Positions 11,836 through 37,900 of a DNA stretch of 37,900 nucleotides are shown here, piece after piece (position 1 is the first letter of the stretch; each line of letters begins with the position of its first letter). The translations under genes were made by a program, and so were the position numbers. The stretch comes from an uncultured Roseburia sp. (lineage in GTDB: Bacteria > Bacillota > Clostridia > Lachnospirales > Lachnospiraceae). The notes under the pieces were generated by a model. The model searched no databases and was not told the DNA's origin. It saw only the letters and a program-made list of their open reading frames with translations. The stretch covers positions 1 to 37,900 of the forward strand of contig CANSKO010000023.1 of assembly GCA_947647505.1 (NCBI GenBank), in the 5' to 3' direction.

Positions 11836-11859
11836 AGCATCTTCTCCCTGTAAAATCCC

Positions 11860-13567: not shown

Positions 13568-13614
13568 TTTTTCGTTTCCTCCGATTTATTCCAGAATTTA
13601 TTACAAACATCTGA

Positions 13615-13643: not shown

Positions 13644-13645
13644 GA

Positions 13646-13993
13646 CTATGTAAGCAATTCCAGACTTACCTCAAGCGCCTTGTCCACTTTAAACAGCATG
13701 CTGCTGTCCAGATGGCAGACTTTGTCTTTTAATCTTTTTTTATCAATCGTGCGAAGCTGCTCCAATAAAATGACGGAATCCTTCACCATATCGTATTTTT
13801 CGCTGTCCAGCTCCACGTGCGTCGGCAGTTTGGCTTTGTGCATCTGCGAAGTGATTGCCGCACAGATCACGGTCGGGGAATGACGGTTTCCGACATCATT
13901 TTGGATAATCAGCACCGGACGCACGCCGCCCTGCTCCGATCCAATGACCGGCCGAAGATCTGCATAATAGATATCTCCTCTGTGAATCGCCAT
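13646..13993 (-). CDS. ndoA: MazF/PemK-family endoribonuclease toxin (EndoA/NdoA-like)
   Basis: The 115-residue protein matches the length and motifs of the MazF family, which cuts mRNA at short sequences: [19 protein letters not shown] with the conserved arginine-proline strand, [12 protein letters not shown], and the [16 protein letters not shown] segment. I place the start at 13993 (MAIHRGD), where GGAGGGAGT precedes the ATG; the longer frame to 14293 runs antisense-like through alr codons and lacks any family similarity. In Bacillus subtilis alr is followed by an antitoxin gene and then ndoA. Here only 82 bp separate alr from the toxin and no antitoxin frame is present, so the toxin is an orphan in this locus. 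Confidence 0.92.
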
Positions 13994-14075
13994 ATATGAC
14001 TCCCTCCATTTTTTTATGATAGAAAGAGTATTTCCAGTTTTTACAGTTCTATTCACAGATGTTTCAGGGATTTTT

Positions 14076-23314: not shown

Positions 23315-24250
23315 ATGAAACGAAAACAAAGACGACTGCTTCGACTTTCTGTTTCGCTGGCGACCGGCGGCGCCGCTTTTTGCATTCTGCTGTCCGTTCT
23401 GATGGAACCGGATATTCCGGAAGCAAACCGGAGCGAAACAGAAACGGCAGAACACACCCTTTTCAACAGAGCGGAAACAGAAGAAGCTGCCGCGCAGCAT
23501 GCAGCAGAAACGGAAACGCGCGCAAACGAGCCCCATACGGAAACGATTTCCGGAAAACAAAATCTGCATACGGAACGGGAACGCATCTTAAATCTTGCCG
23601 CAGGAGAACTGGCTGCGATCGGAAAGCTTACGGCGGAACAAATTCCGGACCTGTTTTTTGCATGTGAAATTGACGATACGATTTTTGCACGCATCAACGG
23701 AGCCTCCTATACAGAAAACGATGCGATTTCCCTTTCGGAGCTTTCGTATCTGAAACTGCTGTATTATGGATTTGACGGAAATACCTACGTTGGTGAAATG
23801 ATTGTAAATAAAAAAATCGAAAACGATGTGCTTTCGATTTTTCAGACACTGTATGAAAACAACTACCCGATTGAACGTATGACGCTTATCGACGCTTACG
23901 GCGCAAGCGATGCTTTGTCTATGGAAGACAACAATACTTCCGCGTTCAATTACCGCACGATTTCCGGCAGCAGCAAGCTTTCCAATCACAGCTACGGCAT
24001 GGCAATCGACTTAAATCCAAAATACAACCCCTACGTCAAAACGGCCTCTGACGGATCGCTCGTATGCCAGCCTGAAAGCGGAAGGGAATACGCAGACCGC
24101 TCCGCCGATTTTGCATACAAAATCGACGAAAACGATCTGGCCTTTCGCCTGTTTACACAGGCCGGCTTTGACTGGGGCGGAAACTGGAACAGCGTCAGGG
24201 ATTATCAGCATTTTGAAAAGAAGCCAGAAGATCCAGCAGCGTCTCACTAA
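23315..24250 (+). CDS. M15-family zinc peptidase (VanY/D,D-carboxypeptidase-like), membrane-anchored
   Basis: The 311-residue protein has an N-terminal membrane anchor (about residues 10-28), a Glu/Thr/Ala-rich linker (about 35-90) and a C-terminal M15 peptidase domain that would cut peptidoglycan stem peptides or cross-bridges outside the cell. The zinc ligands are visible: His225 and Asp232 in SNHSYGMAIDLNP, and His299 in DYQHFEK. AAAGGAGG precedes the ATG at 23315. It follows the XRE gene by 22 bp. Its last 56 bp overlap the convergent gene at 24195. The exact bond cut cannot be told from sequence. Confidence 0.9.
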   Translation: MKRKQRRLLRLSVSLATGGAAFCILLSVLMEPDIPEANRSETETAEHTLFNRAETEEAAAQHAAETETRANEPHTETISGKQNLHTERERILNLAAGELAAIGKLTAEQIPDLFFACEIDDTIFARINGASYTENDAISLSELSYLKLLYYGFDGNTYVGEMIVNKKIENDVLSIFQTLYENNYPIERMTLIDAYGASDALSMEDNNTSAFNYRTISGSSKLSNHSYGMAIDLNPKYNPYVKTASDGSLVCQPESGREYADRSADFAYKIDENDLAFRLFTQAGFDWGGNWNSVRDYQHFEKKPEDPAASH

Positions 24251-24971
24251 TGCGCTGATCCGTACACTCTGAAAGCTTTGCATTCCAATCCTGATTGGTA
24301 TACAAAAATTCGATCAGATTGCAGGCGTCAAAGATTCCTTCTGCCCTTCCTTCCTGATACAGATTCGGATTCCCTACGGCCATCCCCTGCTTTTCGCAAT
24401 GTGAAAGCAGCGCAAACAGCTCCATCTCCGTCGCACGGCCTTTATCAATGGCGTTGACGTCCACATAATAACGCTGCTCTCCTTCCGACGTCTTAAGACA
24501 AACCTCTACAATCGGACGTTCTGCCGTAGAATGTTCGGCATACCGTGCAAAAAACGGCACGTTTCCTACGGCGCCAAGCCCAAGCACGCCAGACGTCTGT
24601 TCACCCTGGCGATAAGAAACTGCAATCTGCCCGGATTCCGATTCCAGATACACAGATTTGCAGGTAAGGCTGCGCATGGCTTCATATGCTTCCTGCACCT
24701 TTCGATATCCTTCCATATCGCCGGAGTCCCTCTGCTGCGTCTTAAGGTTTTTGACCTCTTCCAGATAATTGTACCGCTGCTCCTCTCCTTCCGGTTCCTT
24801 CAGAAAATCAAACGCCCCCTCCGACACGCTTCCCTGTGCCAGCATTGCATCGGCAAACGTCCGCATTTCTTCGTACGTCGCATTGGAAAAATCGACGGTT
24901 CCTGCCGTTCGCATTCTAAAACCGGCATATCCTGCGCCATGCGCAACGTATTTCATCTGTCCTGTAAACAT
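24195..24971 (-). CDS. Protein of unknown function
   Basis: I do not recognise this 258-residue protein. It is soluble in appearance, with no signal peptide or membrane segment. The N-terminal part has a short Gly-rich stretch (VAHGAGYAGFRMRTAG), followed by charged helices (about 45-110, EEMRTFADAML, EEVKNLKTQQRD). A likely beta-rich middle (VYLESESGQIAVSYRQGEQ, RYYVDVNAIDKG) leads to a helical C-terminus. AAGGAGAG lies just before the ATG at 24971, so I prefer it to the frame start at 25001. The gene is convergent with the M15 peptidase gene and overlaps it by 56 bp. No function is proposed. Confidence 0.75.
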   Translation of the reverse strand: MFTGQMKYVAHGAGYAGFRMRTAGTVDFSNATYEEMRTFADAMLAQGSVSEGAFDFLKEPEGEEQRYNYLEEVKNLKTQQRDSGDMEGYRKVQEAYEAMRSLTCKSVYLESESGQIAVSYRQGEQTSGVLGLGAVGNVPFFARYAEHSTAERPIVEVCLKTSEGEQRYYVDVNAIDKGRATEMELFALLSHCEKQGMAVGNPNLYQEGRAEGIFDACNLIEFLYTNQDWNAKLSECTDQRISETLLDLLASFQNADNP

Positions 24972-25048
24972 ATCTCTCCTTTCCGCAATCCTTCTCTCCA
25001 TCCGGACTGCACGCCCTCCTTTTGGTCCGGGCGCAACATGTTATTGCA

Positions 25049-25098
25049 CAAAAAAAGACATTTTATTTCAAATCATTCCATTGAAACAAAACGTCTTT
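25049..25098 (-). terminator. Strong rho-independent terminator after the small lipoprotein gene
   Basis: An 18-bp stem (25054-25071 with 25081-25098, only two G-T pairs) with a 9-nt loop is followed on the minus strand by seven T. It lies about 80 nt past the stop at 25179. Confidence 0.75.
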
Positions 25099-25178
25099 CC
25101 CTGACACAATATGTATCGGCAAGCCTTATGCGAATCCTGATACCTTTTGCGCTGTTTGCAGGAAAACAATCTTATAAA

Positions 25179-25601
25179 TCAATATCCGCAGTCAGCATGC
25201 TCCCATTCTCCGCCATCCCTTCGAATCAGAATCCAGTTCCAATCCTCATACGTCGAGTCAGGATCAAGGGAACCGTCTCCCCCGGATGCGTCTACATCAA
25301 AAGACGAAACCAGTACGATCGCTTCCTCAGCATCATATTGCTCCGCCCATTCATGAAATACATCCGCATACGTGTCCCCAGGATAATAGAGTTCCGTAAG
25401 CGTACAGCCGGTAAACTCGTTTTTGAAATAATCTTTTACCGTTTCACATGCCGCTTTAATATCGTCATCGGAATATATTTCAGACGGTGTCCAATCCGGA
25501 ATTTGAACGTGATCAATATTGCCCCCGATGTCTTTCTCTCCACAGCCGGCAATATTTAATATCATTATCAAAGTTATAAGAATAAGCGCTTTCTTTGTCA
25601 T
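25179..25601 (-). CDS. Small lipoprotein of unknown function
   Basis: The 140-residue protein starts with a lipoprotein signal (MTKKALILITLIMILNIAGC, acylated Cys20), so the rest should face outward on the membrane. The mature part is acidic, with Asp-rich stretches (EIYSDDDIKAAC, DVDASGGDGSLDPDST) and a C-terminal EHADCGY. The gene has its own promoter (25662-25690), a GGGAGATG ribosome site and a strong terminator. I do not recognise a named family. Confidence 0.85.
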   Translation of the reverse strand: MTKKALILITLIMILNIAGCGEKDIGGNIDHVQIPDWTPSEIYSDDDIKAACETVKDYFKNEFTGCTLTELYYPGDTYADVFHEWAEQYDAEEAIVLVSSFDVDASGGDGSLDPDSTYEDWNWILIRRDGGEWEHADCGY

Positions 25602-25942: not shown

Positions 25943-28054
25943 TTATCTTAATGCGTCATCGATAAATAAACTTCTATTCCCATAATACATGATATCAAGT
26001 TTATGCAGCGCTCTAGTTCCTGCAATATATAATATCTGTCTGTCTCTTTCCGAATTATATTCTTCTACAGTAACACTGGGAACAATCACATAATCAAACT
26101 CTAATCCTTTTACCAGGTACGAATTTGTTACAATAATTCCTTCATGGAAGTTTGAATTCTCATTATTCATTAAATAACACTTTTCTTTATGGTCATCATC
26201 TAATGCAGCATACAATTCATCTGCTGCTGATGCAGTTTTACAAATTACAACCATAGTAGTAGTAACTGATAAATCTACACTATCAATTTTTTTCTGGATA
26301 CTATCTATCATAGAATTGTAATTATCATACTGCTCAATACTTGGCATTTCACCATGTCGCTCAAATGATTCGGCATCTGATAAACTGCACATTTTTCTGC
26401 AAAACTCACTGATTTCAAAAGTTGAACGGTAACTTTTCATCATCTTAACGAACGTAGCTTTCTCTCCAAAGATCTTTTCCAGGTTATCTATTAAAGTAGC
26501 ATTATTACGATCAACTACCTGATTTATATCACCTAAAATAGTCATTTTACATTTGAAAAGAGTATTTAAAATTTCATACTGAACCATCGAATAATCTTGC
26601 ATTTCATCAACTATAACATGCTTTATTCTTTCAAAATATGACCTTTCGTTTCCGAATAAAAGAAATTTTAATAAAATAATTGGAAAAACATCCTCATATT
26701 GAACATTATTATTTGGAGACAAACTAAACGCCTGACATTCAGAATATTTTAAACGCACTTTAGTAATAAACTGCTCATACAATTCCATGATATTTTTTGT
26801 TTTCGCCATATCTTTCAAGTTTTTCTTAATTTCATTTCTAGAAGATATAGAAATAATCGCACCATGATCAGATTCGTATATATCCGCTATTCTATCCGCA
26901 ATATGATCCAATCTTACAAACACAGGATACTTTGACAACATCATTCCAGAATATAATTCCTTAATCCATGCGCCTTCTGTTGACTCACCATTCAACGAAT
27001 ACGCAGAAAATTCAAACAAAGTATCTTCCAATTCTTTTGCAAATTCTTTCAGTTCATTCAGGAATGCAGTCCCACTTTTTAATCTAATGCTTTTTAATCT
27101 TTCATCGTCCTCCTGACAATTAATCACATACTCCATCTGTTTATATTTTTTTTCATATTTTGAAATCCCCTTCATCTCATGCTCGGCAATTTCATCAAAA
27201 CTTACCTCTGTTATGTTTTGCTCACCTAATTCTGGTAATACATTTGAAATATAGTCTGAAAAAATAGTATTTGGCGAAATAATTAAAACTTCACTTGATT
27301 TTAAATTATTTCTATTCTGGTAAAGTAAAAATGCTATTCGATGTAATGCAATCGATGTTTTTCCAGAACCTGCAACCCCCTGAACAACCATGACATTAGA
27401 TGACTGATCCCTTACAATGGAATTCTGTTCTTTTTGAATGGTCGCGACAATATTTCTCATCTTTGTACTCCCATTGCCTGACAATTCTTTCTGTAATATT
27501 TCGTCATCTATATTAAAATTGGATTGTATTGCATATTCCATAACACCTTTTCTAATTTTCAACTGTCTTTTCTGAGTAATCTCGCCATCAATAGTGCCCA
27601 TAGGCGCTTCATAAAACGCTTTTCCTGTATCAAAATCATAATACATACTTGAAATAGGAGCTCTCCAGTCATATATCAGGTTACTGATATTCCCTTTTTC
27701 CTGTAATCCTCCAAGACCGATATATAATATCTCAGCTTCATCCTCACCATCATATACAAAATCAATCCTGCCAAAATAAGGATTTTCATTTTGTTTCATC
27801 AATAGTCTTCTTTTATTGTCCCTCATCTCATAAGAATCATGTTCTTCCGAAATACTTAATCTATTAGAAGCAATTTCTTCCGGATCAAGCTCATAAATGT
27901 TTTCCCAAAGATATCTTTTTTGCTCAAGAATTCCTTCTTTCGCTTTTTCCATCGAATTTTCCACTTCATCCAACTGTTTTGAAATAACACCCTGAATATA
28001 GTCTAAGTGTTCCAATTCTTCTTTCTTTATACTGTTATCTACTTTATTATCCAT
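25943..28054 (-). CDS. HelD-like superfamily 1 helicase/ATPase (RNA polymerase recycling type)
   Basis: The 703-residue protein has the HelD layout. An N-terminal helical hairpin/coiled coil (about 10-60) comes first, then the family hallmarks YFGRIDF and DWRAPISSMYYDFDTG. Walker A is VQGVAGSGKTSIALHRIAFL (GVAGSGKTS, residues 226-234) and the Walker B region is HVIVDEMQDYSMVQYEIL; a C-terminal UvrD-like domain includes VKGLEFDYVIVPSV. HelD proteins pull stalled RNA polymerase off nucleic acid, and some actinobacterial relatives (HelR) protect it from rifamycins. GGAGG precedes the ATG. The gene is AT-rich like the island and follows the CYTH gene by 205 bp, so it may belong functionally to that operon or be an independent passenger. 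Confidence 0.9.
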   Translation of the reverse strand: MDNKVDNSIKKEELEHLDYIQGVISKQLDEVENSMEKAKEGILEQKRYLWENIYELDPEEIASNRLSISEEHDSYEMRDNKRRLLMKQNENPYFGRIDFVYDGEDEAEILYIGLGGLQEKGNISNLIYDWRAPISSMYYDFDTGKAFYEAPMGTIDGEITQKRQLKIRKGVMEYAIQSNFNIDDEILQKELSGNGSTKMRNIVATIQKEQNSIVRDQSSNVMVVQGVAGSGKTSIALHRIAFLLYQNRNNLKSSEVLIISPNTIFSDYISNVLPELGEQNITEVSFDEIAEHEMKGISKYEKKYKQMEYVINCQEDDERLKSIRLKSGTAFLNELKEFAKELEDTLFEFSAYSLNGESTEGAWIKELYSGMMLSKYPVFVRLDHIADRIADIYESDHGAIISISSRNEIKKNLKDMAKTKNIMELYEQFITKVRLKYSECQAFSLSPNNNVQYEDVFPIILLKFLLFGNERSYFERIKHVIVDEMQDYSMVQYEILNTLFKCKMTILGDINQVVDRNNATLIDNLEKIFGEKATFVKMMKSYRSTFEISEFCRKMCSLSDAESFERHGEMPSIEQYDNYNSMIDSIQKKIDSVDLSVTTTMVVICKTASAADELYAALDDDHKEKCYLMNNENSNFHEGIIVTNSYLVKGLEFDYVIVPSVTVEEYNSERDRQILYIAGTRALHKLDIMYYGNRSLFIDDALR

Positions 28055-28259: not shown

Positions 28260-28742
28260 CTATTCCTCACAAAATCGCCTCCATATGTTTTTTACATAGA
28301 ACCTTTCATTTTCTGTGACCTCTTCCTTCACAAAATCGTATCCTTTTATTTTTCCCTGCATCTTATGATAATCTTCCATATCAGCATATTCGATCTCTGC
28401 AAAACAAATATCTATGTTTTTACATTTTTTAAATGAAATGCTATGTATCTCATCAATTGCATATTCCCATACCTCAAAAACTAAATCCTTACAACAATTG
28501 ACATCCATGATATCAAAATACTGTTCCCTGGATAATCTCATTTTGACTTCTTTTCTCTTTAAAAAATTCTCGCTTTTAAAAGTTAAATTATATCGTTCTT
28601 CACCATCATCAAAAACTCTTCTATTTATGCGAATCTCTGGATCTGATGATAAATATTGACGATACACTATTGTATGTCGAATAAATTCTAATTCATTTTG
28701 GGGCAATTTATCAAAAATAAACTTTTGCTCAATTTCATACAT
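28260..28742 (-). CDS. CYTH-domain (triphosphate tunnel) protein
   Basis: The 160-residue protein begins MYEIEQKF, giving the CYTH signature E-x-E-x-K at residues 3-7. It continues with basic strands (EIRINRRVF, YNLTFKS, VKMRLSRE) and an acidic strand CFAEIEYADMEDY, as in triphosphate tunnel metalloenzymes. Such proteins bind triphosphates or nucleotides with divalent metals and act as triphosphatases or adenylate cyclases. I start it at 28742, five bases after the upstream stop, because the signature then sits at the N-terminus; an upstream ATG at 28769 lies inside the previous gene without a ribosome site. It is the last close-packed gene of the peptide-maturation operon. Confidence 0.78.
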   Translation of the reverse strand: MYEIEQKFIFDKLPQNELEFIRHTIVYRQYLSSDPEIRINRRVFDDGEERYNLTFKSENFLKRKEVKMRLSREQYFDIMDVNCCKDLVFEVWEYAIDEIHSISFKKCKNIDICFAEIEYADMEDYHKMQGKIKGYDFVKEEVTENERFYVKNIWRRFCEE

Positions 28743-28747
28743 ATTAA

Positions 28748-30832
28748 TTAGCCAACTCCTATAATCCATTGTCCATTGTCTTTTATTAGACTCATAAAAT
28801 AATCTACAGGAAAGATCACCTTATAAAACGCTTCTTTTCCCGGAGATACCAAAACTACGCTGTTTTCTTTTATCTCATCTAATACTACATAATGATGATT
28901 TCCTCTAAATTCTTCATCATTAAATAATACGTCGCTCCTCACACACAAAATAATATCACTTACCTGTTTTTTTAATTCCTTAATAACAAGAAGATCCATT
29001 TCTTTTTCAATGAAACAATTATGCCTGCCGATGCAATCATCAAGCCTCTTCATTTCAATACAGTCATAATTCACTTTATTTTTGTAATCATTCATAAGAT
29101 TACTTTTATAATAAAAAACTTTTGTATTAATACCAACTTCATCCTCCAAGTAATTTACCAATTCGAAAATCCAAATTAACTCCTTGTCATTTCGACTTCC
29201 TCTTTTCTCTTTTAAAATGAAATCTACACATGCATTTCCACAAGATAAATCCCTTTTTTTTGCAGCAAATGGATACCATATTATCTTATTCATCCAATTT
29301 TTTCCATTTATAAAGAACTCATGGTTAGATTGGCTCACAAAAACAGCTGTTTTTTCTTCAAACGAATTACGCCAACTGTTTTCGATTTTCATGTTCTCTG
29401 GTATTACTACTTTTTTTAATCTTACTTGTCCAAAGCTTCGCTCTCCTATATCATTAACCACTTCGTCCAATAAAAGGTTCACTATTTTACATTTTTCAAA
29501 TGCAAAAGCTCCAATCTTTACTGTTTTTACATTCAATTCTTTTACGTTAATTTTTTCATAATAAGCATATGGGTATATATATATTCCACTGTTAATTGTT
29601 AACTTATTTTTTATTTGACTTTGAATACAGAAAAATACATTATTATCTTTATCTATGATACATCCCTGAAAGGTTTTATACTGCATTGAATCCAATTTTA
29701 TATTATCAATACTGTTACTCCCAACAAAACACCCTGGCGCTAAGAAGATAATGTTATTTCCATTAAATATAATTTCCTGGAGTTTTTTACAATATGAAAA
29801 AGCAGCATATCCAACTTTTTCAACAGTGTGTGGAACACTAATTCTCTTAATCCTTCCACAGCCTGCAAATGCACAATTTTCAATTTTTTTTACTTGAGCT
29901 AAAACAAGATTTTTTTTTAAATTAGGAACTTTTATCAAAGTATCTATACTTTTATCATATAAAACTCCGTAATAGGATGAAAACCTGTCATTATCAGGAT
30001 CTACAATATATTCGGTTATATCTGCTTCTTCAAATGCAAATGCAGATATCTCAGTAACACTCTCTGGTATTTCTATCCGTATTTTTCCAGTACAGTTTCT
30101 AAATGCCCGCTCTCGTATACAAGTTATTCCATTCGGCACTTTTACAGTTTCCGAATTATATATACATTTTATCAACTCATTCTTATAGCAAATAAACTTT
30201 CCCGATTCTGTTTCAATAGCATCTTTTGTTGGCTGCAATATCTTACATATTGATGTATATTTCTCTGCGCATTTTTCCATCCCATATTGATATGCATAAA
30301 AAATAACATCACTCGTCTCATCAAAAGTAATACTTGAATTATCAATTACTAAAACTTTAAAATTCATTTGCCCAACAAACTCAAACATGAATCTATATGC
30401 CATTTCCGATATTTTGGGTTTTACCAGATCTTTATCATGGTTATTTCTGCTATATATACGACGAAACAATGTTTCAGAGTCGGCATACAGAATAATCATT
30501 AAATCCGGCTCACCCCAAGCCATTGAAATACATTTAAAATACTCCACTGATAAATCATTTGCCCTTGACCAATAATTTGAAATATAAAATCTGTCCGTTA
30601 CAACATTCTTCTTTTCTAATTTGTTAAAAAAATAATTTTGTCTTATTCCGTATATCCCCGGAACATCGCCTCCTGTATACTTATCAATTGTTACAAAACT
30701 ATCATAAATTCCACTCGTATCATGCATTTCGTGAAATGATTTAGCAATAAACTCGCCGCCAATTCTTTTAGCAAGAACTTTGGCCTGACTCGTTTTTCCC
30801 ACACCATCCATTCCTTCAATAGCTATATGCAT
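28748..30832 (-). CDS. Three-part protein: thymidylate-kinase-like domain, BspA-type leucine-rich repeats, GUCD1/C39-like papain-fold domain
   Basis: Three regions are visible in this 694-residue protein. Residues 1-190 resemble thymidylate kinase: P-loop EGMDGVGKTS (6-15), the DRFYISNYWSRAND motif and PDLMIILYADSETLFRRI. Residues about 210-490 are leucine-rich repeats of the BspA/LRR_5 type (IPESVTEISAFAFEEADI, CAFAGCGRIKRISVPHTVEKVGYAAF). Residues 525-694 resemble the guanylylate cyclase 2/GUCD1 and C39 peptidase-like papain fold: Cys531 in SCGNACVDFIL, His646/647 in GNHHYVVLDEI, then VSPG where these families often have a D/N-P-A. GAGGTGAT precedes the ATG. It lies 4 bp after the nucleotidyltransferase gene. 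There is no signal peptide, so it is cytosolic. A role in leader removal or peptide binding is inference. Confidence 0.75.
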   Translation of the reverse strand: MHIAIEGMDGVGKTSQAKVLAKRIGGEFIAKSFHEMHDTSGIYDSFVTIDKYTGGDVPGIYGIRQNYFFNKLEKKNVVTDRFYISNYWSRANDLSVEYFKCISMAWGEPDLMIILYADSETLFRRIYSRNNHDKDLVKPKISEMAYRFMFEFVGQMNFKVLVIDNSSITFDETSDVIFYAYQYGMEKCAEKYTSICKILQPTKDAIETESGKFICYKNELIKCIYNSETVKVPNGITCIRERAFRNCTGKIRIEIPESVTEISAFAFEEADITEYIVDPDNDRFSSYYGVLYDKSIDTLIKVPNLKKNLVLAQVKKIENCAFAGCGRIKRISVPHTVEKVGYAAFSYCKKLQEIIFNGNNIIFLAPGCFVGSNSIDNIKLDSMQYKTFQGCIIDKDNNVFFCIQSQIKNKLTINSGIYIYPYAYYEKINVKELNVKTVKIGAFAFEKCKIVNLLLDEVVNDIGERSFGQVRLKKVVIPENMKIENSWRNSFEEKTAVFVSQSNHEFFINGKNWMNKIIWYPFAAKKRDLSCGNACVDFILKEKRGSRNDKELIWIFELVNYLEDEVGINTKVFYYKSNLMNDYKNKVNYDCIEMKRLDDCIGRHNCFIEKEMDLLVIKELKKQVSDIILCVRSDVLFNDEEFRGNHHYVVLDEIKENSVVLVSPGKEAFYKVIFPVDYFMSLIKDNGQWIIGVG

Positions 30833-30836
30833 AAAA

Positions 30837-32597
30837 TCACCTCAAACTATCCAGCCATCGTTCCTCAAAAGCTATAGCATATGGTATGTCCATAATCTCT
30901 GAGCCTGACACTTCCACAATTCGCTTTAAATATTTTCTAATCTCAGTTTTCATACTTTCCTCATAGTTCTCTCGCATTTCAAGAAATATACCTACCGGCG
31001 TTACAATTAAAAAAATGTATCCAATTTGAATTCGATAAATCAGATCTGTAAGCCGACTCATTCGTATTATTTTTTCATAAAATTCACACTGTTTGATTTT
31101 ATTGACAAACTTATCGACATTTATTACTTTTTTGAATATTAATGTCGGATACAAATATACCCTCTGTGTATCAACCTGATCTTCAATATATTTCTCAAAA
31201 TAGACCGTTTTAATTCTTCTAACATCATCTTCACTGTATGGCCATTCTCTTAAATTAACACGATCCATTAATTCTTTATACTCCTCAAACACCGCATAAA
31301 TCATACTTGAATTATCGGAAATAACATAGTCTTGCTTTATAAATTTCAATACAACAGAGAATAACTCACCTAAACCATTCTTTTCTATTTCCTTCTTCAA
31401 TACATCCAAACTATATTTATTTTGAGATAACATGATAAACAAGTCATTAATATCCTTCAAAAAAACTTCTTTATGTTTAAACAAATGACATAATGCGACA
31501 ACAATTAAACTTTCCAAAGCCAGTCCCTGTTCAGAAGCTATTGGGACATAACTGGCTACCCTAATCATTGGAAAACCAGTGAAATTCACATCAATTATTA
31601 ACCGAAATTGCAAATTTATGATTTTCTGAACATGTAAATGCCCCGTATAGCTTTCTTCATCTCCTTTTACTGTTTTCTTTAATGAAAAAGAATCTGGAAA
31701 AATATTAAAATCGTTTTCCAGCAGCCAACCAATAATTGTAAAAGCGTCTATTTCATTTAATACAAGTAAATCAAAATCTGTCAAATTTCTCATTTGTGGT
31801 TCTGCATACAAATTTTTTGTAAATGCACCTTTTACCCAATACGCCTTTAATTTTTTGTCACTAATAAATTTGTTTACCTTATCAACCTCACTTTTTGCCA
31901 TTCTCGTTCTTTGATATTGATAGATAAGCAATCTCCATCGATTATCATGTAAATCGATTGCTTCCAGTTTCTTTAAATTTTGATAAACCATTGGCATCAA
32001 TTTATATTCTTCCATAAATTCAAATTCAGCTTCTCCCAATGATTCATATAACTGTATGGCTTCGTTGCGGGATATATCATGAATATTTAAGCGCCCCAAA
32101 CGCATTAATATTTTTCTTTTATTTTCTGATATTTCGTACTGCCCATGAATATGTCTCGGTTTTTGGTATAACCAGGACACATTCTCTCTTGTAGCACATG
32201 CATCACAATCTAATTTATCAACATAAAGATTAATTTTTTCGTTATTTTCCTCACCGGCAGAGGTTCTTTCCATTGAACATTCACGCAAGATGGATATTGG
32301 TGACATATAACATCCTAATCTATCCATTTTAACAACGTCATCAATTCCCTCTATCCCTTCTCCCTTCTCAAGTTTTAGTCCAATGTCATTGCATATTTTT
32401 GTGATTGCGCTACACGGTTTCCCATTCGCCACTTTCTGCAGATGTCTGCACATTAGTTCACAACATTTACACCCATTTGAGATCATATTAAAGTTCATAA
32501 GACCATCTTCAAAGTCGTATAACAATGTAACGCTATCCCCGCAAGCCAGACCATCTTTCATTACAATGTGACTGGGCATTATTAATTTACTATGCAT
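30837..32597 (-). CDS. SufU/IscU-like domain fused to an NTP_transf_5-type nucleotidyltransferase
   Basis: The 586-residue protein has two parts. Residues 1-110 look like an Fe-S scaffold/sulfur-carrier domain: Cys19 in ACGDSVTLLYDF (compare CGD in SufU), Cys43/45/46/50 in GCKCCELMC, and Cys107 in SILREC at the place of the third ligand cysteine. A CxxC (131-134) follows. Residues about 180-450 resemble the uncharacterised nucleotidyltransferase family often found in peptide-maturation loci: WVKGAFTKNLY (Lys256) and MRNLTDFDLLV (Asp274, Asp276). The remainder is helical and unassigned. Its ATG overlaps the stop of the cysteine desulfurase gene by one base (TAATG), so the sulfur donor and this acceptor are translationally coupled. 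Confidence 0.75.
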   Translation of the reverse strand: MHSKLIMPSHIVMKDGLACGDSVTLLYDFEDGLMNFNMISNGCKCCELMCRHLQKVANGKPCSAITKICNDIGLKLEKGEGIEGIDDVVKMDRLGCYMSPISILRECSMERTSAGEENNEKINLYVDKLDCDACATRENVSWLYQKPRHIHGQYEISENKRKILMRLGRLNIHDISRNEAIQLYESLGEAEFEFMEEYKLMPMVYQNLKKLEAIDLHDNRWRLLIYQYQRTRMAKSEVDKVNKFISDKKLKAYWVKGAFTKNLYAEPQMRNLTDFDLLVLNEIDAFTIIGWLLENDFNIFPDSFSLKKTVKGDEESYTGHLHVQKIINLQFRLIIDVNFTGFPMIRVASYVPIASEQGLALESLIVVALCHLFKHKEVFLKDINDLFIMLSQNKYSLDVLKKEIEKNGLGELFSVVLKFIKQDYVISDNSSMIYAVFEEYKELMDRVNLREWPYSEDDVRRIKTVYFEKYIEDQVDTQRVYLYPTLIFKKVINVDKFVNKIKQCEFYEKIIRMSRLTDLIYRIQIGYIFLIVTPVGIFLEMRENYEESMKTEIRKYLKRIVEVSGSEIMDIPYAIAFEERWLDSLR

Positions 32598-33733
32598 TAC
32601 AAATACCCCCTGATAACATTAACAATCCTCTCCACATCATAACCTTCTATGCCAATCCCCAATGATATTCTAACTATAGGTTTCATACTGAACTTTGCAA
32701 TTGAATTTTGTGAACATATATGACCTGCTCTTACAATTATACCGTTATTTGAAAAAATTTCTTCAACATCATGTGCGTGTATATTTTTATGCCAAAATGA
32801 AACTATAGAAGTCGATTCTCCTGCGCTTACAATAGTAACCTTACTTTTTTTTCTTAATTCTTCCAATATTTCTGATGAATATCGTTTTTCTAAAAATTTT
32901 ATATGATCGAATCCAAACTCATTCATGTACTTACAGGCTTCTTTCCAACCAATGCAATTCGCAACATCGATAGAGCCCGGCTCATATTTTTGAACACCCA
33001 ACTTCCATACATTAGGAAATCCTACTCTTTCTACCATTCCTCCTCCAAAAATACTTGGATTTAAATGATTTAGAAATTTTTTATTTACAAGAGCGCCGGC
33101 TAATGATTTTGGACCATACATTTTATGAGAATTCACAATATTGCAATCTGCCATCTCATTCTTTCTAAATCTAGAGTGGGCACATTTTTGTGAATCATCT
33201 GATATGTATATAATATCATCTCCAAATATTTCTTTCAATCTCACGGTACTTAATGTATACCCATTCGTATTGGCTACTGATGAATATGAAATGATTTTTA
33301 CCCTTTCCTTTATTTCTTTTAGGTACTCAAAGTCAATATCGCCATTACTTAGCAATGGCATTTCAAACAAAATGGCTTTCTTTCGCGAAGCTAATTCACG
33401 CCATGGGAGATAGTTGCTGTGATGCTCATATGGACCAATTAAAATTATATCCATTGGTTCAATCATGTGTTCAAGCCCATAAGCTATGGCATTAATTGCA
33501 TATGTCGCTCCTGGATAAAATATCAATTCAAAATCTGAATCTGTAAAAAAGTTTCTTATATAAGCTCTACTATCCTCAAAAAGCTTATTTGCCTTTATGC
33601 CAATTGAAGAACCTCCACGATTTGGAGCAACATTTATGTCTTTATGATATTGATTTATACTATCAATAACACTCTCTGGCATGAATGTAGTCGCTGCATA
33701 ATCAAAATACGCTATTCTATCATTCATTTTCAT
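32597..33733 (-). CDS. Group II cysteine desulfurase-like PLP enzyme (SufS/CsdA-type)
   Basis: The 378-residue protein carries the catalytic set of class V aminotransferase-fold cysteine desulfurases: His104-His105 in YEHHSNYLPW, Asp179-x2-Gln182 in SDDSQ, PLP Lys204 in NSHKMYGPKSLAGAL, GGGMVERV, and the persulfide-forming Cys340 in VRAGHICSQ. It should release sulfur from cysteine (or selenium from selenocysteine) as an enzyme-bound persulfide. It is slightly shorter than housekeeping SufS (about 405 residues). No sufBCD genes are nearby; instead its partner is the SufU-like/nucleotidyltransferase fusion just downstream. Start ATG 33733 overlaps the ATPase stop (ATGA); a second ATG lies two codons later. 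Confidence 0.87.
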   Translation of the reverse strand: MKMNDRIAYFDYAATTFMPESVIDSINQYHKDINVAPNRGGSSIGIKANKLFEDSRAYIRNFFTDSDFELIFYPGATYAINAIAYGLEHMIEPMDIILIGPYEHHSNYLPWRELASRKKAILFEMPLLSNGDIDFEYLKEIKERVKIISYSSVANTNGYTLSTVRLKEIFGDDIIYISDDSQKCAHSRFRKNEMADCNIVNSHKMYGPKSLAGALVNKKFLNHLNPSIFGGGMVERVGFPNVWKLGVQKYEPGSIDVANCIGWKEACKYMNEFGFDHIKFLEKRYSSEILEELRKKSKVTIVSAGESTSIVSFWHKNIHAHDVEEIFSNNGIIVRAGHICSQNSIAKFSMKPIVRISLGIGIEGYDVERIVNVIRGYL

Positions 33734-34284
33734 ATCCTTTCAATTTCAAATAAGTACTGCAATCCAGCCAAACCGTCATCTTTATGCAATGCCATATACA
33801 GTTCTTTATTCTCTGATTTTATTCTTTCCAATATATCCTTCGATTCTGGAATTAACTCTATCTCGTCAAAAATAATTACATCAACAACGCCTAAAAACAC
33901 TGAAACCACCTGCATGGCATATCTTTGATATATTTTTCTACAACGCTCTCTCTGTTCTCCTGCAGGATAATCGTATCCTTTTTCGAGATAATAGGAAGCA
34001 TCACATAAAATCACTTCTGAATCCAATTCCACTAAATGTGAGGGATACATGTTTTCCCTGATTAATGGATATATAATATCCTTTTTATCACATTGCGAAA
34101 TATTCAGATACTCTTTTGTCTTTGATTGTATTTTTATAAGTAAAGATTTTTCTACATGCTCCGTTGCAGAATCTATAATTAAAATTTTTTTCCCCTTTTC
34201 TAAAGCCTTTTTATATTCTCGAAAAAGATATGTTGATTTCCCCGTATCTCTGTCACCAACGACTGCATTTAATAGATTACTCAT
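33730..34284 (-). CDS. Small P-loop ATPase of unknown role in the peptide-maturation operon
   Basis: The 184-residue protein has Walker A GDRDTGKST (residues 10-18) and Walker B VDVIIFDEIE (134-143), with the catalytic acidic pair Asp140-Glu141. Between them lies a strand ELDSEVILCDASYYLEKG. The fold is RecA/AAA-like, but I cannot name the family. I start it at ATG 34284 (MSNLLNAVVG) rather than the TTG at 34293. It overlaps the radical SAM stop by 8 bp and the desulfurase start by 4 bp, so it is surely part of the operon. It might power peptide handling or complex assembly, which is not shown by sequence. Confidence 0.75.
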   Translation of the reverse strand: MSNLLNAVVGDRDTGKSTYLFREYKKALEKGKKILIIDSATEHVEKSLLIKIQSKTKEYLNISQCDKKDIIYPLIRENMYPSHLVELDSEVILCDASYYLEKGYDYPAGEQRERCRKIYQRYAMQVVSVFLGVVDVIIFDEIELIPESKDILERIKSENKELYMALHKDDGLAGLQYLFEIERI

Positions 34285-35836
34285 GTTTTTCAATCCAATC
34301 CTTAATTAAATACAAGAAAATCTTTCTCCTATCCTCACACTGAGGATCTTCCCTATAGATTGTACCATATGCCCCGTATGCCGAATAACAACATGAACAG
34401 CACATAGCCCGAAATATGCACTTGCTACATTTTTCAATATCTTTATGCGTTCTGTCTCTTAACTTCAAAACCCAATCTTTTGATAAAATATCCTCCAAAG
34501 TTTCTTCCATAATATTACCCATGTTAAATTCCTGTTCATTTTTAAATCCATCACATGGATAAACTGTTCCGTCAGGATTAACAGAAATAACCTCTCTTGC
34601 CGCTCCACATGGATAACGTAAACATATATAATCTCTTACAGGTCCAAAAACATTCTCCTCATGGATATGGACAGAATAATTCTCTATTGGTGCATCTTCT
34701 GATAATTTATGCATCTTAATAAATGCGTCTGCCCACTGCCCACTATTTGTGGTAGTATGATTTTCTAACTCTCTTCCAAGAAGATTTGCCGGTCTGGGCT
34801 TAAAGCTAATTCCCTGTTCAATAAAGAAATTCATAATTCTTTCTGCCTCAGTCATATTATGCTGACCAATAGTACACACAGATCCATCTATTTCGTATTC
34901 TTCTTTTAGCTTATGAACACCCTTAAGTATCTCAGAGAAAGCGCCTTTTCCATTTGCATAAACACGAGTCTGGTTTGTCATCTCTTCATCTCCATCCAGG
35001 CTTACACAAACAGCGACATTATACTTCTTTGCAAACCGAATAAAATCATCGGAAACTAATGTAGCATTCGTAACAGTTCTATACTTAACAAGTTTTGAAT
35101 ACTTTTCTTTCAGTCCCTCAGATATCTCAACAAACATCCTCATACCCTCTAAGTAACATAACGGTTCTCCTCCTTGAAGCTCAAATGTTATCAATTTTGA
35201 AGGCATCTGAAACATTTGTTCAATAATTCTTTTCATTACATCCTTAGACATAAAGTCCCCTGCTTCTGGCTCACATGCAGCAAAACAATACTTACATCTC
35301 AGATTACATGTCATTGTCAGGTTAACTACTATTACACTGGGTTTTTCAGCCGGTTTCGGAAAATCCATTTCCACAGATTCATGATCTGTATCCCTTGCAA
35401 GTTTTCTTACATATAGATTTTCCATCTTATACTTATCCAGTTTACCAGATTCATAATCAGCGATTTCCTCCTCCGTCATAGCAACCCATGAGCCTACACT
35501 TGGATTAAGAACAACAAAATAATCATTTTTTTCCGTTTTAACTGGTATTTTTACATATTCTTTTTTGTCTAATGGTATATACTCAGCGTCAACATTCTCA
35601 TCAGATAAGACACAAAGTTCTCCTTCATCATCAAATGCCATTCCTCTGTAATATAAATTTTCCATTTTAAGAAAATCCAAATTGTTATTTAACAAATCAT
35701 TGTACTCTTCTTTGGTTAACCGGTATCTGTTATTTCCCTTCTTTAAAATCAAAATGCTTTCATCACTTGAATTTATATATTTAAAATCATAATTTTCTAA
35801 TTTCCTATAATTAGTTTGCATCCATGGTGTTTTCAT
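34277..35836 (-). CDS. Radical SAM/SPASM peptide maturase with a duplicated N-terminal domain
   Basis: The 519-residue enzyme has the radical SAM cluster motif CNLRCKYC (Cys177, 181, 184) and GGEP in LQGGEPLCYLEG. The C-terminal SPASM region (about 400-505) has many cysteines (CGAAREVISVNPDGTVYPC, then CSKCIFRAMCCSCC and QCE) for auxiliary Fe-S clusters. Such enzymes install carbon-sulfur, carbon-carbon or related crosslinks in ribosomal peptides. The first 155 residues hold two similar units in gapless register 80 residues apart (KMENLY at 57-62 and 137-142); they resemble the peptide-recognition-like N-termini of other maturases. I start it at ATG 35836, with TTGGAG 6 nt upstream. It is the first enzyme gene after the 46-residue peptide gene. 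Confidence 0.92.
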   Translation of the reverse strand: MKTPWMQTNYRKLENYDFKYINSSDESILILKKGNNRYRLTKEEYNDLLNNNLDFLKMENLYYRGMAFDDEGELCVLSDENVDAEYIPLDKKEYVKIPVKTEKNDYFVVLNPSVGSWVAMTEEEIADYESGKLDKYKMENLYVRKLARDTDHESVEMDFPKPAEKPSVIVVNLTMTCNLRCKYCFAACEPEAGDFMSKDVMKRIIEQMFQMPSKLITFELQGGEPLCYLEGMRMFVEISEGLKEKYSKLVKYRTVTNATLVSDDFIRFAKKYNVAVCVSLDGDEEMTNQTRVYANGKGAFSEILKGVHKLKEEYEIDGSVCTIGQHNMTEAERIMNFFIEQGISFKPRPANLLGRELENHTTTNSGQWADAFIKMHKLSEDAPIENYSVHIHEENVFGPVRDYICLRYPCGAAREVISVNPDGTVYPCDGFKNEQEFNMGNIMEETLEDILSKDWVLKLRDRTHKDIEKCSKCIFRAMCCSCCYSAYGAYGTIYREDPQCEDRRKIFLYLIKDWIEKHE

Positions 35837-35871
35837 AAGAATCTCCAATCATTCTATTTGAGATAAATGAA

Positions 35872-35903
35872 AGAGGCGACTTGCTTCCAGCAACATCACC
35901 TCT
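35872..35903 (-). terminator. Hairpin between peptide gene and maturase, possible attenuator
   Basis: An 8-bp stem on the minus strand (AGAGGTGA with TCGCCTCT, one G-T pair; plus coordinates 35896-35903 and 35872-35879) lies 24 nt past the peptide stop and is followed by TTCATTTAT, a weak T-rich tract. A leaky hairpin here would give more peptide mRNA than maturase mRNA, as in many RiPP operons. Confidence 0.5.
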
Positions 35904-35926
35904 TATAATCCCACATTCATATATGA

Positions 35927-36067
35927 TTACTGGTGCGTATGTGTACCACAACCATCGTATCCTAACTTATTACCAACATCAAATCTAACTGTAAGTTTCT
36001 TCTTGCCTTCTTCCGTTTTCTTAACTTCTGCTTTTAAACCTTTTACAACATCATTCGTTCTCTTCAT
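35927..36067 (-). CDS. 46-residue candidate RiPP precursor peptide
   Basis: An ATG at 36067 opens 46 codons ending at TAA 35927-35929. AAAGGAG lies 7-8 nt upstream, and a consensus promoter (36115-36143) points at it. The N-terminal two thirds is charged and Lys/Glu-rich (MKRTNDVVKGLKAEVKK), as expected for a leader that binds a maturase. The C-terminal part RFDVGNKLGYDGCGTHTHQ has a single Cys (40), two His (43, 45), Phe29 and Tyr37, all possible modification sites. No secretion signal or GG cleavage site is seen. Gene order, with the radical SAM maturase next downstream, is the main reason to call it a precursor. I do not recognise a known precursor family. Confidence 0.78.
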   Translation of the reverse strand: MKRTNDVVKGLKAEVKKTEEGKKKLTVRFDVGNKLGYDGCGTHTHQ

Positions 36068-36114
36068 AATACGCTTCTCCTTTCGCTAAGAATAAAATAT
36101 TATCATATGTTAAA

Positions 36115-36143
36115 AGCATATCCTAATACTTTAATTTTGTCAA
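36115..36143 (-). promoter_or_regulatory. Promoter of the peptide-maturation operon
   Basis: Minus-strand perfect -35 TTGACA (36138-36143), 17-bp spacer and -10 TATGCT (36115-36120, 4 of 6). The predicted start near 36108 gives a 40-nt leader to the peptide ATG. It lies outside the IS30 inverted repeats. Confidence 0.6.
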
Positions 36144-36195
36144 TTATTTTGTTTTTGCACGACATCTTCCATTCTATTATACTTAATTGCAAATT

Positions 36196-37639
36196 TAAAT
36201 TCCACCCCTCTATGGAATTTAATCCTGCAAATCTTCCTCCCGGCAGGAAGGACGTACTTATGAATAAACAAAAACATTTAAATCTTGAGTCCCGGATTAT
36301 CATCGAAACGAAACTGAACGAAGGTGAGAGCTTTAAAGCAATCGGCAGATTATTAAACAAGGATTGTACCACCATCTCTAAAGAAGTGAAAAATCACATC
36401 TCTTTCGAAAAAAGCGGAGCCTATGGCAAAGCCTTCAATGATTGCCTCCTGGCTTTTCAGCATGAATGCTTCGCTCAAAGGGTATGTCAGGAATGTACCT
36501 CCCGCAAAAATCGCCTTTGCTGGTCCTGTGGCAAATGCTCCTCTTCCTGTATTCTCTACGAAAAGTATGTTTGCCCTAAACTTTCCAAACCGCCTTATGT
36601 CTGTAATGGCTGCTCACAACGTAATAAATGTTCCTTAGAGAAGCGTTTGTACAAAGCCTCTTATGCTCAAAAAGAGTATGAACTGGTCAGAAGGGAATCC
36701 AGGTCCGGTTTTGCCCTCTCGGAAAGTGAACTCAGACAGATCGATGACATTGTTTCGCCTCTTTTAATAAAAGGACAATCTCTTCATCACATCGCTGTCC
36801 ACCATGCAGATGAACTCATGAAATCCGAACGGACTCTGTATGCCTATATAAACAGCGGCCTTTTTACTGCCAGAAACATGGATATGCCACGAACCGTCCG
36901 CATGCGCCCAAGAAAGAATGTCTCCAAGAATCTCAAAGTGGACAAGGCCTGCCGCCTGGGACGTGATTTCTCCTGTTTCCAGGCATATATGCAAGAACAT
37001 CCTGATCGCTCTATCCGTCAGATTGATTCTGTAGAAGGCAGCAAGGGCAGCGCGGCTCTCCTCACCATACATTTCGTAGAACAGGGACTGCAGCTTGCTT
37101 TTCTCAGACAACACAACGACTCCCAGTCTGTGATCGATATTTTCAACCGTCTTTATCTGGAAATGAGGCCTGATATTTTTATAGAACTGTTCCCTGTTCT
37201 ATTAGCAGATAACGGAAGTGAGTTTTCGAATCCTGCCGCCATTGAATCTGATATGCAGGGAAATCCACGCACGAAAATGTTTTATTGCGACCCCAGTGCG
37301 CCTTATCAGAAAGGCAGCTGCGAAAACAATCATGAAATGATCCGGCGAATCATTCCGAAAGGCGAAGATATCGGTCGATACACGCAGGAACAGATTAATC
37401 TTATGATGAGCCATATCAATTCCTATGCAAGAAAGAAACTTGGAAATAAGAGTCCGTATGAGATATTTGAATTTCAATACGGAAAGGAACTTCTGGATGC
37501 ATTCCATCTGCAAAAGATTCCTGCAGATGAAATCATCCTGAGTCCTGAATTATTAAAATAAACTCTAAAACATAATCAAAAAGCTGGGCAGGAATCTATT
37601 GCAGCCATCATCGCAGAATCTCCCCAGAGGTGGAATTTA
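36196..37639 (+). mobile_element. IS30-family insertion sequence (approximate ends)
   Basis: The element is defined by its transposase and by an 11-bp inverted repeat, TAAATTCCACC at 36196-36206 and GGTGGAATTTA at 37629-37639. Further copies of the GAATTTA motif occur at 36215 and 37779-37838, so the true outer end on the right may lie near 37838. No target-site duplication could be fixed. Confidence 0.55.
36260..37561 (+). CDS. IS30-family transposase
   Basis: The 433-residue protein has an N-terminal HTH typical of IS30 (LNLESRIIIETKLNEGESFKAIGRLLNKDCTTISKEV), a cysteine-rich middle (CQECTSRKNRLCWSCGKC, CNGCSQRNKC) and an integrase-like DDE core. The catalytic acids are in IRQIDSVEGSKG (Asp), LLADNGSEFSNP (Asp) and CENNHEMIRRIIPKG (Glu). 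The frame is intact, so it may be active. The ATG at 36260 follows AGGAAGGACG; the open frame upstream to 36107 crosses the inverted repeat and is unlikely to be translated. It is divergent from the peptide operon. Confidence 0.93.
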   Translation: MNKQKHLNLESRIIIETKLNEGESFKAIGRLLNKDCTTISKEVKNHISFEKSGAYGKAFNDCLLAFQHECFAQRVCQECTSRKNRLCWSCGKCSSSCILYEKYVCPKLSKPPYVCNGCSQRNKCSLEKRLYKASYAQKEYELVRRESRSGFALSESELRQIDDIVSPLLIKGQSLHHIAVHHADELMKSERTLYAYINSGLFTARNMDMPRTVRMRPRKNVSKNLKVDKACRLGRDFSCFQAYMQEHPDRSIRQIDSVEGSKGSAALLTIHFVEQGLQLAFLRQHNDSQSVIDIFNRLYLEMRPDIFIELFPVLLADNGSEFSNPAAIESDMQGNPRTKMFYCDPSAPYQKGSCENNHEMIRRIIPKGEDIGRYTQEQINLMMSHINSYARKKLGNKSPYEIFEFQYGKELLDAFHLQKIPADEIILSPELLK

Positions 37640-37900
37640 CTCTATCCGAAAAATCAACCGTAAATTCGACTTCCGCTCAGCATGCAATAAAACACCCAAA
37701 ACCACAGCTTTTATTTGTATTTTAACTCTGATTTCGGGTATTTTCTATATGAAATCTCTATTTTTCTGTATTCCTATTGAATTTACTTTTTCAAAGCGGA
37801 ATTTAATCTTACAAAGTGGAATTTACTTTTTCAATTCACCTCCATTCTACTACAATGTATTTATGGTTAATGCCCCTTACAGCCAGTAAGGAATTATCCA
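37562..37900. other. Non-coding right flank of the IS30 element
   Basis: No convincing gene is seen. It contains the right inverted repeat (37629-37639) and the three 20-bp tandem repeats (37779-37838). A 96-codon open frame (37599-37889) runs through these repeats and lacks a ribosome site, so I leave it out. Confidence 0.5.
37779..37838. repeat. Three tandem imperfect 20-bp repeats beside the IS30 element
   Basis: Units are GAATTTACTTTTTCAAAGCG (37779-37798), GAATTTAATCTTACAAAGTG (37799-37818) and GAATTTACTTTTTCAATTCA (37819-37838). Each begins with the motif also present in the element's inverted repeats, so they are likely transposase-binding iterons or nested element ends. Confidence 0.7.

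What the first reader, a model, noticed from the sequence alone, without database searches (positions are those of the whole stretch)
28260..36143. Candidate undescribed RiPP operon combining radical SAM, sulfur mobilisation, nucleotidyl transfer and a papain-fold protein
Seven genes are read leftward from one promoter with overlaps or gaps of a few bases: 46-aa peptide, radical SAM/SPASM enzyme, P-loop ATPase, cysteine desulfurase, SufU-like/nucleotidyltransferase fusion, kinase-LRR-papain-fold protein, CYTH protein. Radical SAM/SPASM enzymes beside short peptide genes are the signature of RiPP pathways. A dedicated desulfurase and sulfur-acceptor domain together with a nucleotidyltransferase suggest a sulfur- or nucleotide-based step in addition to the radical chemistry. 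I know no characterised RiPP class with this full set.
Basis: partly seen in the sequence, partly recalled or inferred. Interest (0 to 1): 0.9.

Follow-up and report, generated by a model that had tools for sequence, protein, structure and literature searches.

The report
Peptide-modifying island with polymerase guard
This bacterium carries an AT-rich, likely imported block of eight genes that encodes a small peptide with an almost unchanging ten-residue tail, enzymes predicted to modify it by radical, sulfur and nucleotide chemistry, and a HelD transcription-rescue protein that would likely shield the maker's own RNA polymerase, which points to an undescribed class of peptide product.

The parts
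36115..36143 (-). sigma-70-like promoter match (TTGACA-17-TATGCT) upstream of the peptide gene
   Evidence: consensus scan only, 10 of 12 matches; such sites not enriched over shuffles
35927..36067 (-). 46-aa precursor peptide, leader NDxVKGLK, core GYDGCGTHTH, AGGAG ribosome site upstream
   Evidence: 19-row alignment, 14 invariant columns; core pattern 1 match in window, 0 in 100 shuffles
35871..35904 (-). RNA hairpin between the peptide and radical SAM genes (likely sets peptide:enzyme ratio, inferred)
   Evidence: the 90-nt gap folds at -25.5 kcal/mol, z -2.52; a hairpin at the same place in L008, z -2.51
34277..35836 (-). radical SAM/SPASM maturase (ATG at 35836; longest frame from TTG at 35848)
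   Evidence: 56% identical to L008; 57% by BLAST; 5wgg, which I recall as CteB, E 4.5e-32
33730..34293 (-). small P-loop ATPase, GDRxxGKxT, FDEIE
   Evidence: 27% identical to L008, motifs kept
32597..33733 (-). SufS-like cysteine desulfurase; K204 and C340 invariant in 9 rows
   Evidence: not the genome's only SufS-like gene
30837..32597 (-). SufU-nucleotidyltransferase fusion; SufU metal ligands C19, D21, C43, C96; CDAC motif 131-134; NTase D274, D276, D336
   Evidence: model pLDDT 84.9, pTM 0.86; fold matches
28748..30832 (-). thymidylate-kinase-like domain, BspA-type LRRs, C-terminal C39/papain-like domain (SCGxAC, HY)
   Evidence: C39 part inconclusive
28260..28769 (-). CYTH/triphosphate-tunnel-like protein
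   Evidence: weak: 2fbl E 0.0027; no counterpart found by BLAST in L008
25943..28054 (-). Class I HelD (RNAP-remodelling motor), DWRAP motif, acidic arm tip
   Evidence: NF041464 523 bits, cut-off 419; 6wvk E 1.1e-116

Best explanation
This is an AT-rich, likely horizontally acquired eight-gene island encoding a precursor peptide whose GYDGCG[TS]HTH tail is predicted to be cross-linked by a radical SAM enzyme and further modified by a dedicated sulfur-transfer and nucleotidyl/phosphate-transfer module, giving a product that likely acts on RNA polymerase while the island's HelD would protect the maker. Shown by sequence: the eight genes, their shared composition, the conserved core, the conserved catalytic residues, the co-location of HelD. 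Inferred: (1) the leader NDxVKGLK recruits the maturase; (2) the maturase links conserved core residues (Y, D, C, T/S, H), by resemblance to thioether- and cross-link-forming maturases; (3) the desulfurase passes persulfide to the SufU domain, for the product or for Fe-S loading of the maturase; (4) the kinase domain and the MenT/ANT-like nucleotidyltransferase add phosphate and a nucleotide to the core; (5) the C39-like domain removes the leader; (6) HelD removes the product or product-stalled complexes from RNAP. My estimates: real RiPP-type locus 0.9; HelD an integral part 0.93; RNAP as target about 0.4.
For: Peptide: 17 relatives plus L008; 14 invariant columns although L008 is only 41% identical to the window's. 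Same order in a Lentisphaerae MAG, maturase 56% identical. HelD: inside the L008 operon, frame overlapping the ATPase's; the only one over cut-off in both genomes; in the window's family 39 of 200 genomes have one over cut-off, so it is not universal; contig lengths shared with SufU-NT on 6 contigs, on 3 of them with the peptide too; different HelD lineages in the two loci; no HelD gene in the held flanks of the 6 peptide-less loci L009-L014, and none over cut-off in the 3 of their genomes searched (those of L009, L010, L012). Composition: all 8 genes GC 0.30-0.36 and GC3 0.25-0.29 against 0.45-0.57 and 0.53-0.62 for 15 genes that I chose on the contig; sharp edges near 25.8 and 36.3 kb; AT-rich in L008 too (0.356 vs 0.471). 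Chemistry: SufU ligands and NTase acids invariant in 29 rows, fold matches; desulfurase K204/C340 invariant in 9 rows; another SufS-like and a SufU gene side by side in the genome. Precedents: B. subtilis Class I HelD protects RNAP from rifampicin through its N-terminal arm (PMC12802891, abstract and passages), and the window's HelD keeps an acidic tip (ELDPEE) at the aligned place; a kinase plus annotated nucleotidyltransferase decorate the lasso peptide pseudomycoidin (PMC9266682, passages).
Against: I saw no exporter among the island's genes or in the L008 operon, though the window's upstream side ends in an IS30-like element and the contig end, and L008's operon starts at a contig end. A core this invariant is unusual for a bacteriocin and fits a cofactor or fixed-target effector as well. 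HelD also has a housekeeping role, occurs in family genomes without the peptide (a same-genus genome has one), and its acidic tip is common across the family, so HelD does not prove an RNAP poison. A 205-nt gap separates helD from the CYTH gene, so co-transcription is not shown. BLAST found no CYTH gene in L008. The C39 domain is unproven. Co-location in public contigs rests on equal contig lengths, gene order there was not read, and of 11 close SufU-NT clusters with contigs of 9 kb or more, 5 (two of them the window's own protein) share no length with a listed HelD (only 120 HelD rows were listed). Both genomes are draft assemblies, L008 a MAG.
Confidence: 0.42

Rival explanations
1. The product is a peptide-derived cofactor or intracellular effector (as PQQ or mycofactocin are) rather than a poison; HelD works with it on transcription instead of protecting against it.
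For: Near-invariant core across two phyla; no exporter seen in either operon; many tailoring enzymes for a short core.
Against: Very sporadic spread (peptide in 1 of 391, 1 of 398 and 1 of 15 genomes, each time the window's own); no client enzyme recognised in both loci; HelD of different lineages in the two loci looks like recruitment of a protector.
Confidence: 0.25
2. The desulfurase and SufU domain only load Fe-S clusters into the SPASM maturase; the product carries no extra sulfur, and the nucleotidyltransferase and kinase act on something else.
For: SufS/SufU are Fe-S assembly proteins and SPASM maturases need several clusters (recalled); the SufU ligands are kept.
Against: The genome has another SufS-like gene beside a SufU gene; SufU is fused to a nucleotidyltransferase in all 29 aligned rows (the search only takes proteins of like length), and in one protein the desulfurase is fused on as well (P0024), tying sulfur to nucleotidyl transfer; the same module appears with a PP-loop (ThiI/QueC-like) enzyme in L014.
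Confidence: 0.35
3. It is a defence or conflict system: a modified peptide or nucleotide that stops transcription on phage attack, with HelD as the reset.
For: Sporadic, AT-rich, likely mobile; PADLOC matches of the kinase domain to VakA (E 2.1e-6) and PDC-M51B (3.3e-9), of the radical SAM to pVip (2.7e-15), of the desulfurase to DndA/SspA (2e-21, 4e-21) and of HelD to GajB helicases (best 4.8e-13).
Against: These look like superfamily matches: the radical SAM fits peptide maturases far better (6e-54), the desulfurase SufS (6e-72), the helicase HelD (9e-157). Four of the eight proteins match no PADLOC model. I did not test for neighbouring defence genes.
Confidence: 0.1
4. HelD is a passenger that happens to lie next to the operon.
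For: Own ribosome site and a 205-nt gap in the window; 39 of 200 family genomes have a HelD over cut-off somewhere.
Confidence: 0.06

Closest known systems
His-Xaa-Ser system maturase HxsB (TIGR03978)
   Same: Best NCBIfam match of the maturase, residues 112-522, profile 14-455 of 466 (183.5 bits)
   Different: Far under the cut-off of 370; one radical SAM gene, not the HxsB/HxsC pair (pair recalled); core is GYDGCG[TS]HTH, not His-Xaa-Ser repeats
SCIFF/ranthipeptide/sactipeptide maturases (CteB, PapB, ScfB-like)
   Same: Radical SAM + SPASM beside a short Cys-bearing peptide; closest solved structure 5wgg (E 4.5e-32; recalled as CteB)
   Different: PapB model 158.6 bits against cut-off 340; single-Cys core; desulfurase, SufU-NT, kinase and HelD partners not known to me in those classes
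Paeninodin/pseudomycoidin lasso peptide tailoring (PadeK; PsmK, PsmN)
   Same: Kinase plus annotated nucleotidyltransferase decorate the peptide C-terminus (PMC9266682, passages)
   Different: No lasso cyclase recognised here; the kinase is thymidylate-kinase-like; the NTase is fused to SufU; homology to PsmN not tested
SufS-SufU sulfur transfer
   Same: SufU ligands and fold; desulfurase catalytic residues
   Different: SufU fused to a MenT/ANT-type nucleotidyltransferase; the pair is extra to another one in the genome
MenT1 and ANT(2'')-Ia nucleotidyltransferases
   Different: 7-17% identity, other substrates; a shared fold shows no function
Class I HelD (B. subtilis) and HelR
   Same: HelD_BACSU equivalog over cut-off, DWRAP motif, acidic arm tip; protection of RNAP from rifampicin (HelD: PMC12802891, passages; HelR: abstract start in listing)
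   Different: The stretch between residues 346 and 446 is shorter than in 6wvk; sits in a peptide operon; product to be countered is unknown

Membership tests
RiPP biosynthetic locus | short precursor gene with conserved leader and core next to a peptide maturase | tested here: met
   peptide directly upstream of the maturase in both loci; 14 invariant columns in 19 rows
RiPP biosynthetic locus | peptide is actually modified and released | not testable with these tools
   needs expression and mass spectrometry
His-Xaa-Ser system | HxsB equivalog score over cut-off | tested here: not met
   183.5 bits, cut-off 370
His-Xaa-Ser system | His-Xaa-Ser repeats in the peptide | tested here: not met
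   core GYDGCG[TS]HTH in 19 rows
SCIFF / ranthipeptide (PapB) / other named radical SAM classes | maturase over an NCBIfam cut-off | tested here: not met
   86 NCBIfam families matched; none of the 25 shown reaches its cut-off; the 61 weaker ones were not shown
Zinc-dependent SufU | four metal ligands and SufU fold | tested here: met
Class I HelD | HelD_BACSU score over cut-off, DWR[A/S]P, long N-terminal arm | tested here: met
   523.2 bits, cut-off 419; DWRAP and arm aligned to 6wvk
Class I HelD as self-protection | protects RNAP against the locus's product | not testable with these tools
   needs in vitro transcription
Peptidase C39 / papain fold | Cys-His catalytic site and fold | tested here: inconclusive
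   SCGxAC and HY kept in 2 rows; Pfam 19 bits under cut-off 22, no Pfam C39 match in L008; model pLDDT 46.5
CYTH / triphosphate tunnel | CYTH profile match | tested here: inconclusive
   no Pfam CYTH match; 2fbl E 0.0027
Pseudomycoidin-type tailoring | PsmN-like nucleotidyltransferase modifying a phosphorylated residue | not tested
   no PsmN sequence compared; precedent read only as passages
pVip / DND / other PADLOC defence system | full set of a named system | tested here: not met
   matches by single proteins to models of different systems; 4 of 8 proteins match none

The most novel reading that the evidence does not exclude
A new RiPP class: a peptide whose GYDGCG[TS]HTH core is radically cross-linked, sulfurated and nucleotidylated so that it mimics or blocks a nucleotide in RNA polymerase, with a dedicated HelD, recruited more than once, as the immunity protein that pries it off. 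To my knowledge it would be the first peptide cluster with an RNAP-recycling motor as its immunity gene.
Probability: 0.25. Interest if true: 0.92.

Novelty: new variant of a known kind. Interest (0 to 1): 0.73.

Why it matters
If right, it adds a RiPP class with chemistry (sulfur plus nucleotidyl transfer on a radical-modified peptide) that I found described nowhere in my paper searches, and gives a genomic route to RNA polymerase inhibitors: look for HelD inside biosynthetic operons. It also defines a reusable module (SufS + SufU-nucleotidyltransferase + kinase + radical SAM) seen here in three kinds of cluster, which makes the role of the uncharacterised NTP_transf_5 family testable.

Tried and rejected
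HxsB, SCIFF, PapB and other named maturase classes: rejected on NCBIfam cut-offs, for the 25 of 86 matched families shown. Anti-phage system: PADLOC gave only single-protein matches. Plasmid or phage carriage: window SufU-NT and maturase not found in 72,556 plasmid records (E limits 1e-5 and 1e-30); the L008 maturase matched 1 unannotated 'Bacteriophage sp.' record at 25%, not followed; no viral contig was confirmed to encode SufU-NT (298 stretches matched a seed pattern) and none holds the exact core pattern.

More loci: SufU-NT in 299 family genomes gave 4 matches, 3 of them fragments at E 2e-4 to 8e-4 that I discard; in 392 order genomes only the window's own and the Anaerotignum cluster already held. 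The peptide profile matched only the starting genome each time: 1 of 391, 1 of 197, 1 of 15, 1 of 398 (the draws overlap).

C39 domain: sequence search of solved structures gave nothing credible (29 matches, best E 0.46); the two-row AlphaFold model is too poor to search, so I did not search with it.

Rows dropped: A1 uses 29 of 33 proteins (left out P0002, P0003, P0005, P0006). The HelD tree uses 49 of 120 listed proteins and 10 of 12 loci (L031, L036 left out as odd or short); the AU run also leaves out long-branched P0132, and the clade was named after I had seen the tree, which weakens its p-value. One search used 63 of 64 far HelD rows. A 2323-base length shared by peptide P0043 and HelD P0102 may be chance and is not counted.

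Papers: the 5-term search (desulfurase, RiPP, radical SAM, SPASM, precursor peptide; at least 4) gave 25 papers, 20 shown, of which one mentions a cysteine desulfurase, once. Core motif: 0 papers. HelR/BGC/self-resistance/HelD-like/RiPP (at least 3): 70 papers, the 10 shown hold no HelR. The first HelD search was of little use because 'held' is a common word. His-Xaa-Ser: 2 papers, seen as listing only.
Full report
WHAT IS THERE. The seven frames lie on the minus strand between 36067 and 28260: peptide 35927-36067; radical SAM/SPASM 34277-35836 (longest frame from TTG 35848); P-loop ATPase 33730-34293; SufS-like desulfurase 32597-33733; SufU-nucleotidyltransferase 30837-32597; thymidylate-kinase-like/LRR/C39-like 28748-30832; CYTH-like 28260-28769. 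Domain calls come, with weak support for CYTH and for the C39-like part. The peptide has a clear ribosome site. A 90-nt gap with a hairpin separates it from the maturase gene; L008 has a hairpin at the same place (z -2.52 and -2.51).

AN EIGHTH GENE. HelD (25943-28054) lies directly downstream on the same strand, after a 205-nt gap, and scores 523 bits on the HelD_BACSU equivalog (cut-off 419). It aligns with B. subtilis HelD 6wvk at E 1.1e-116 and keeps DWRAP. All eight genes have GC 0.30-0.36 and GC3 0.25-0.29; 15 other genes that I chose on the same contig have 0.45-0.57 and 0.53-0.62. The GC step lies near 25.8 and 36.3 kb, so the eight genes form one compositional island, likely imported. 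A frame that I read as an IS30-like transposase (36107-37561 +; not searched) borders it.

THE SAME SET IN ANOTHER PHYLUM. A genome-collection scan with the SufU-NT alignment gave 7 loci from 91 stretches. One, L008 (MAG labelled Lentisphaerae), has peptide, radical SAM, ATPase, HelD, desulfurase, SufU-NT and kinase-LRR protein in that order, HelD inside the operon. Maturases are 56% identical over the alignment (57% in the best BLAST piece). BLAST found no CYTH gene there. L008 is AT-rich against its surroundings too (0.356 against 0.471).

THE PEPTIDE IS REAL. A protein search gave 17 relatives at E up to 10, 16 of them at E 3e-13 or better. With the window's and L008's, 19 rows show 14 invariant columns: N5 D6, G10-K12, G36-G41 and H43-H45, with T or S at 42. 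The core pattern occurs once in the window and in none of 100 shuffles, and of the 48 loci then held it is in 4, which cover the window's peptide or L008's.

HELD BELONGS TO THE PEPTIDE CLUSTER. It is the only HelD over cut-off in the window's genome and in the Lentisphaerae genome; in the three genomes of L009, L010 and L012, which lack the peptide at their SufU-NT locus, none is over cut-off. Longest-contig lengths shared between search tables put SufU-NT with HelD on 6 contigs, SufU-NT with the peptide on 6, and all three on 3; this is indirect, as I could not read those contigs. Of the 22 close SufU-NT clusters (some of them the window's own protein) 6 share a contig length with a HelD of 44% identity or more; of the 11 distant ones none does. 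Of the 11 close ones with contigs of 9 kb or more, 6 do and 5 do not; only the best 120 HelDs were listed. In six related loci without the peptide (L009-L014; L009 and L013 are short) no HelD gene lies in the held flank; the one HelD match, a 95-aa frame in L011 at E 0.003, I read as a helicase-tail fragment. In a 61-row tree the window's HelD sits in a 26-row clade and L008's in another 22-row clade; joining them is rejected at p 6.7e-6 (60 rows; group named after seeing the tree). So the two versions carry HelDs of different lineages, which suggests repeated recruitment. Against over-reading: 39 of 200 family genomes have some HelD over cut-off, one of the same genus among them, and the acidic arm tip is common in the family.

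THREE CLUSTER TYPES USE THE MODULE. A: the peptide/HelD type here. B: L010 (and L009 as far as its contig reaches): MoaA-like radical SAM with Mob_synth_C, desulfurase, SufU-NT; in L010 also a nucleoside-kinase-like protein, an unknown, and CYTH. C: L014: heptose-type kinase/cytidylyltransferase, GHMP kinase/NTP-transferase, thymidylate-kinase-like, an unknown, GT9, desulfurase, SufU-NT, GT2, radical SAM (29.3 bits, just under cut-off), MBL, AAA_33, PP-loop. Domain calls for C were run on L014 only; L011-L013 look largely alike by gene order and N-termini, with differences (no GHMP-type gene at that place in L011; no MBL or PP-loop in the held part of L013).

HOW IT LIKELY WORKS. The precursor is bound through its leader and cross-linked in the core by the maturase (inferred from family). 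The desulfurase-SufU pair delivers sulfur and the kinase plus nucleotidyltransferase add phosphate or nucleotide (inferred; a kinase and annotated nucleotidyltransferase decorate pseudomycoidin, PMC9266682, passages). The C39-like domain would trim the leader. HelD would shield RNAP: B. subtilis Class I HelD protects RNAP from rifampicin through its N-terminal arm (PMC12802891, abstract and passages), and HelD isoforms in antibiotic producers are discussed in PMC8655204 (passages). The RNAP target is the least certain step, about 0.4.

NOVELTY. No named maturase class reaches its cut-off among the 25 of 86 families shown. Papers held here, as far as listed, give no description of the core or set (limits in Tried and rejected). 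It is a RiPP-type locus by the features tested, with a gene set I find in no described class: new variant of a known kind, possibly a new class.

Noticed in passing
L011 about 4940-16549, L012 about 3226-16586, L013 661-10110, L014 3198-16589: A largely conserved cluster (in L014: heptose-type kinase, GHMP kinase, thymidylate-kinase-like, GT9, desulfurase, SufU-NT, GT2, radical SAM, MBL, AAA_33, PP-loop) in Dialister, Anaerotignum, a Synergistales and a Lachnospiraceae record; possibly a sulfur-containing sugar or nucleotide product. Domain calls made on L014 only.
   Followed up: partly
L010 809-7050; L009 497-4476: Second cluster type: MoaA-like radical SAM (Mob_synth_C), desulfurase, SufU-NT; in L010 also a kinase, an unknown 328-aa protein and CYTH; no precursor peptide recognised.
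   Followed up: partly
P0024: 979-aa protein fusing the cysteine desulfurase with SufU-nucleotidyltransferase.
   Followed up: no
window 36107-37861: Frame that looks like an IS30-type transposase (my reading, not searched) with imperfect inverted repeats (36185-36205 / 37816-37836) and several GTGGAATTTA-type repeats, next to the peptide promoter and the contig end.
   Followed up: partly
window 35871-35904 and L008 about 617-651: Hairpin between peptide and maturase genes in both phyla, likely setting expression ratio.
   Followed up: partly
window 24195-25601: Overlapping frames on both strands (268, 140 and 342 aa) without Pfam match at E 1e-4.
   Followed up: no
window 28748-30832: The kinase domain matches the PADLOC models PDC-M51B (E 3.3e-9) and VakA (E 2.1e-6).
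   Followed up: no
MT837156.1 3682-4863: A 7.6-kb record labelled 'Bacteriophage sp.' from human faeces encodes a distant relative of the L008 maturase at 25% identity; unannotated.
   Followed up: no
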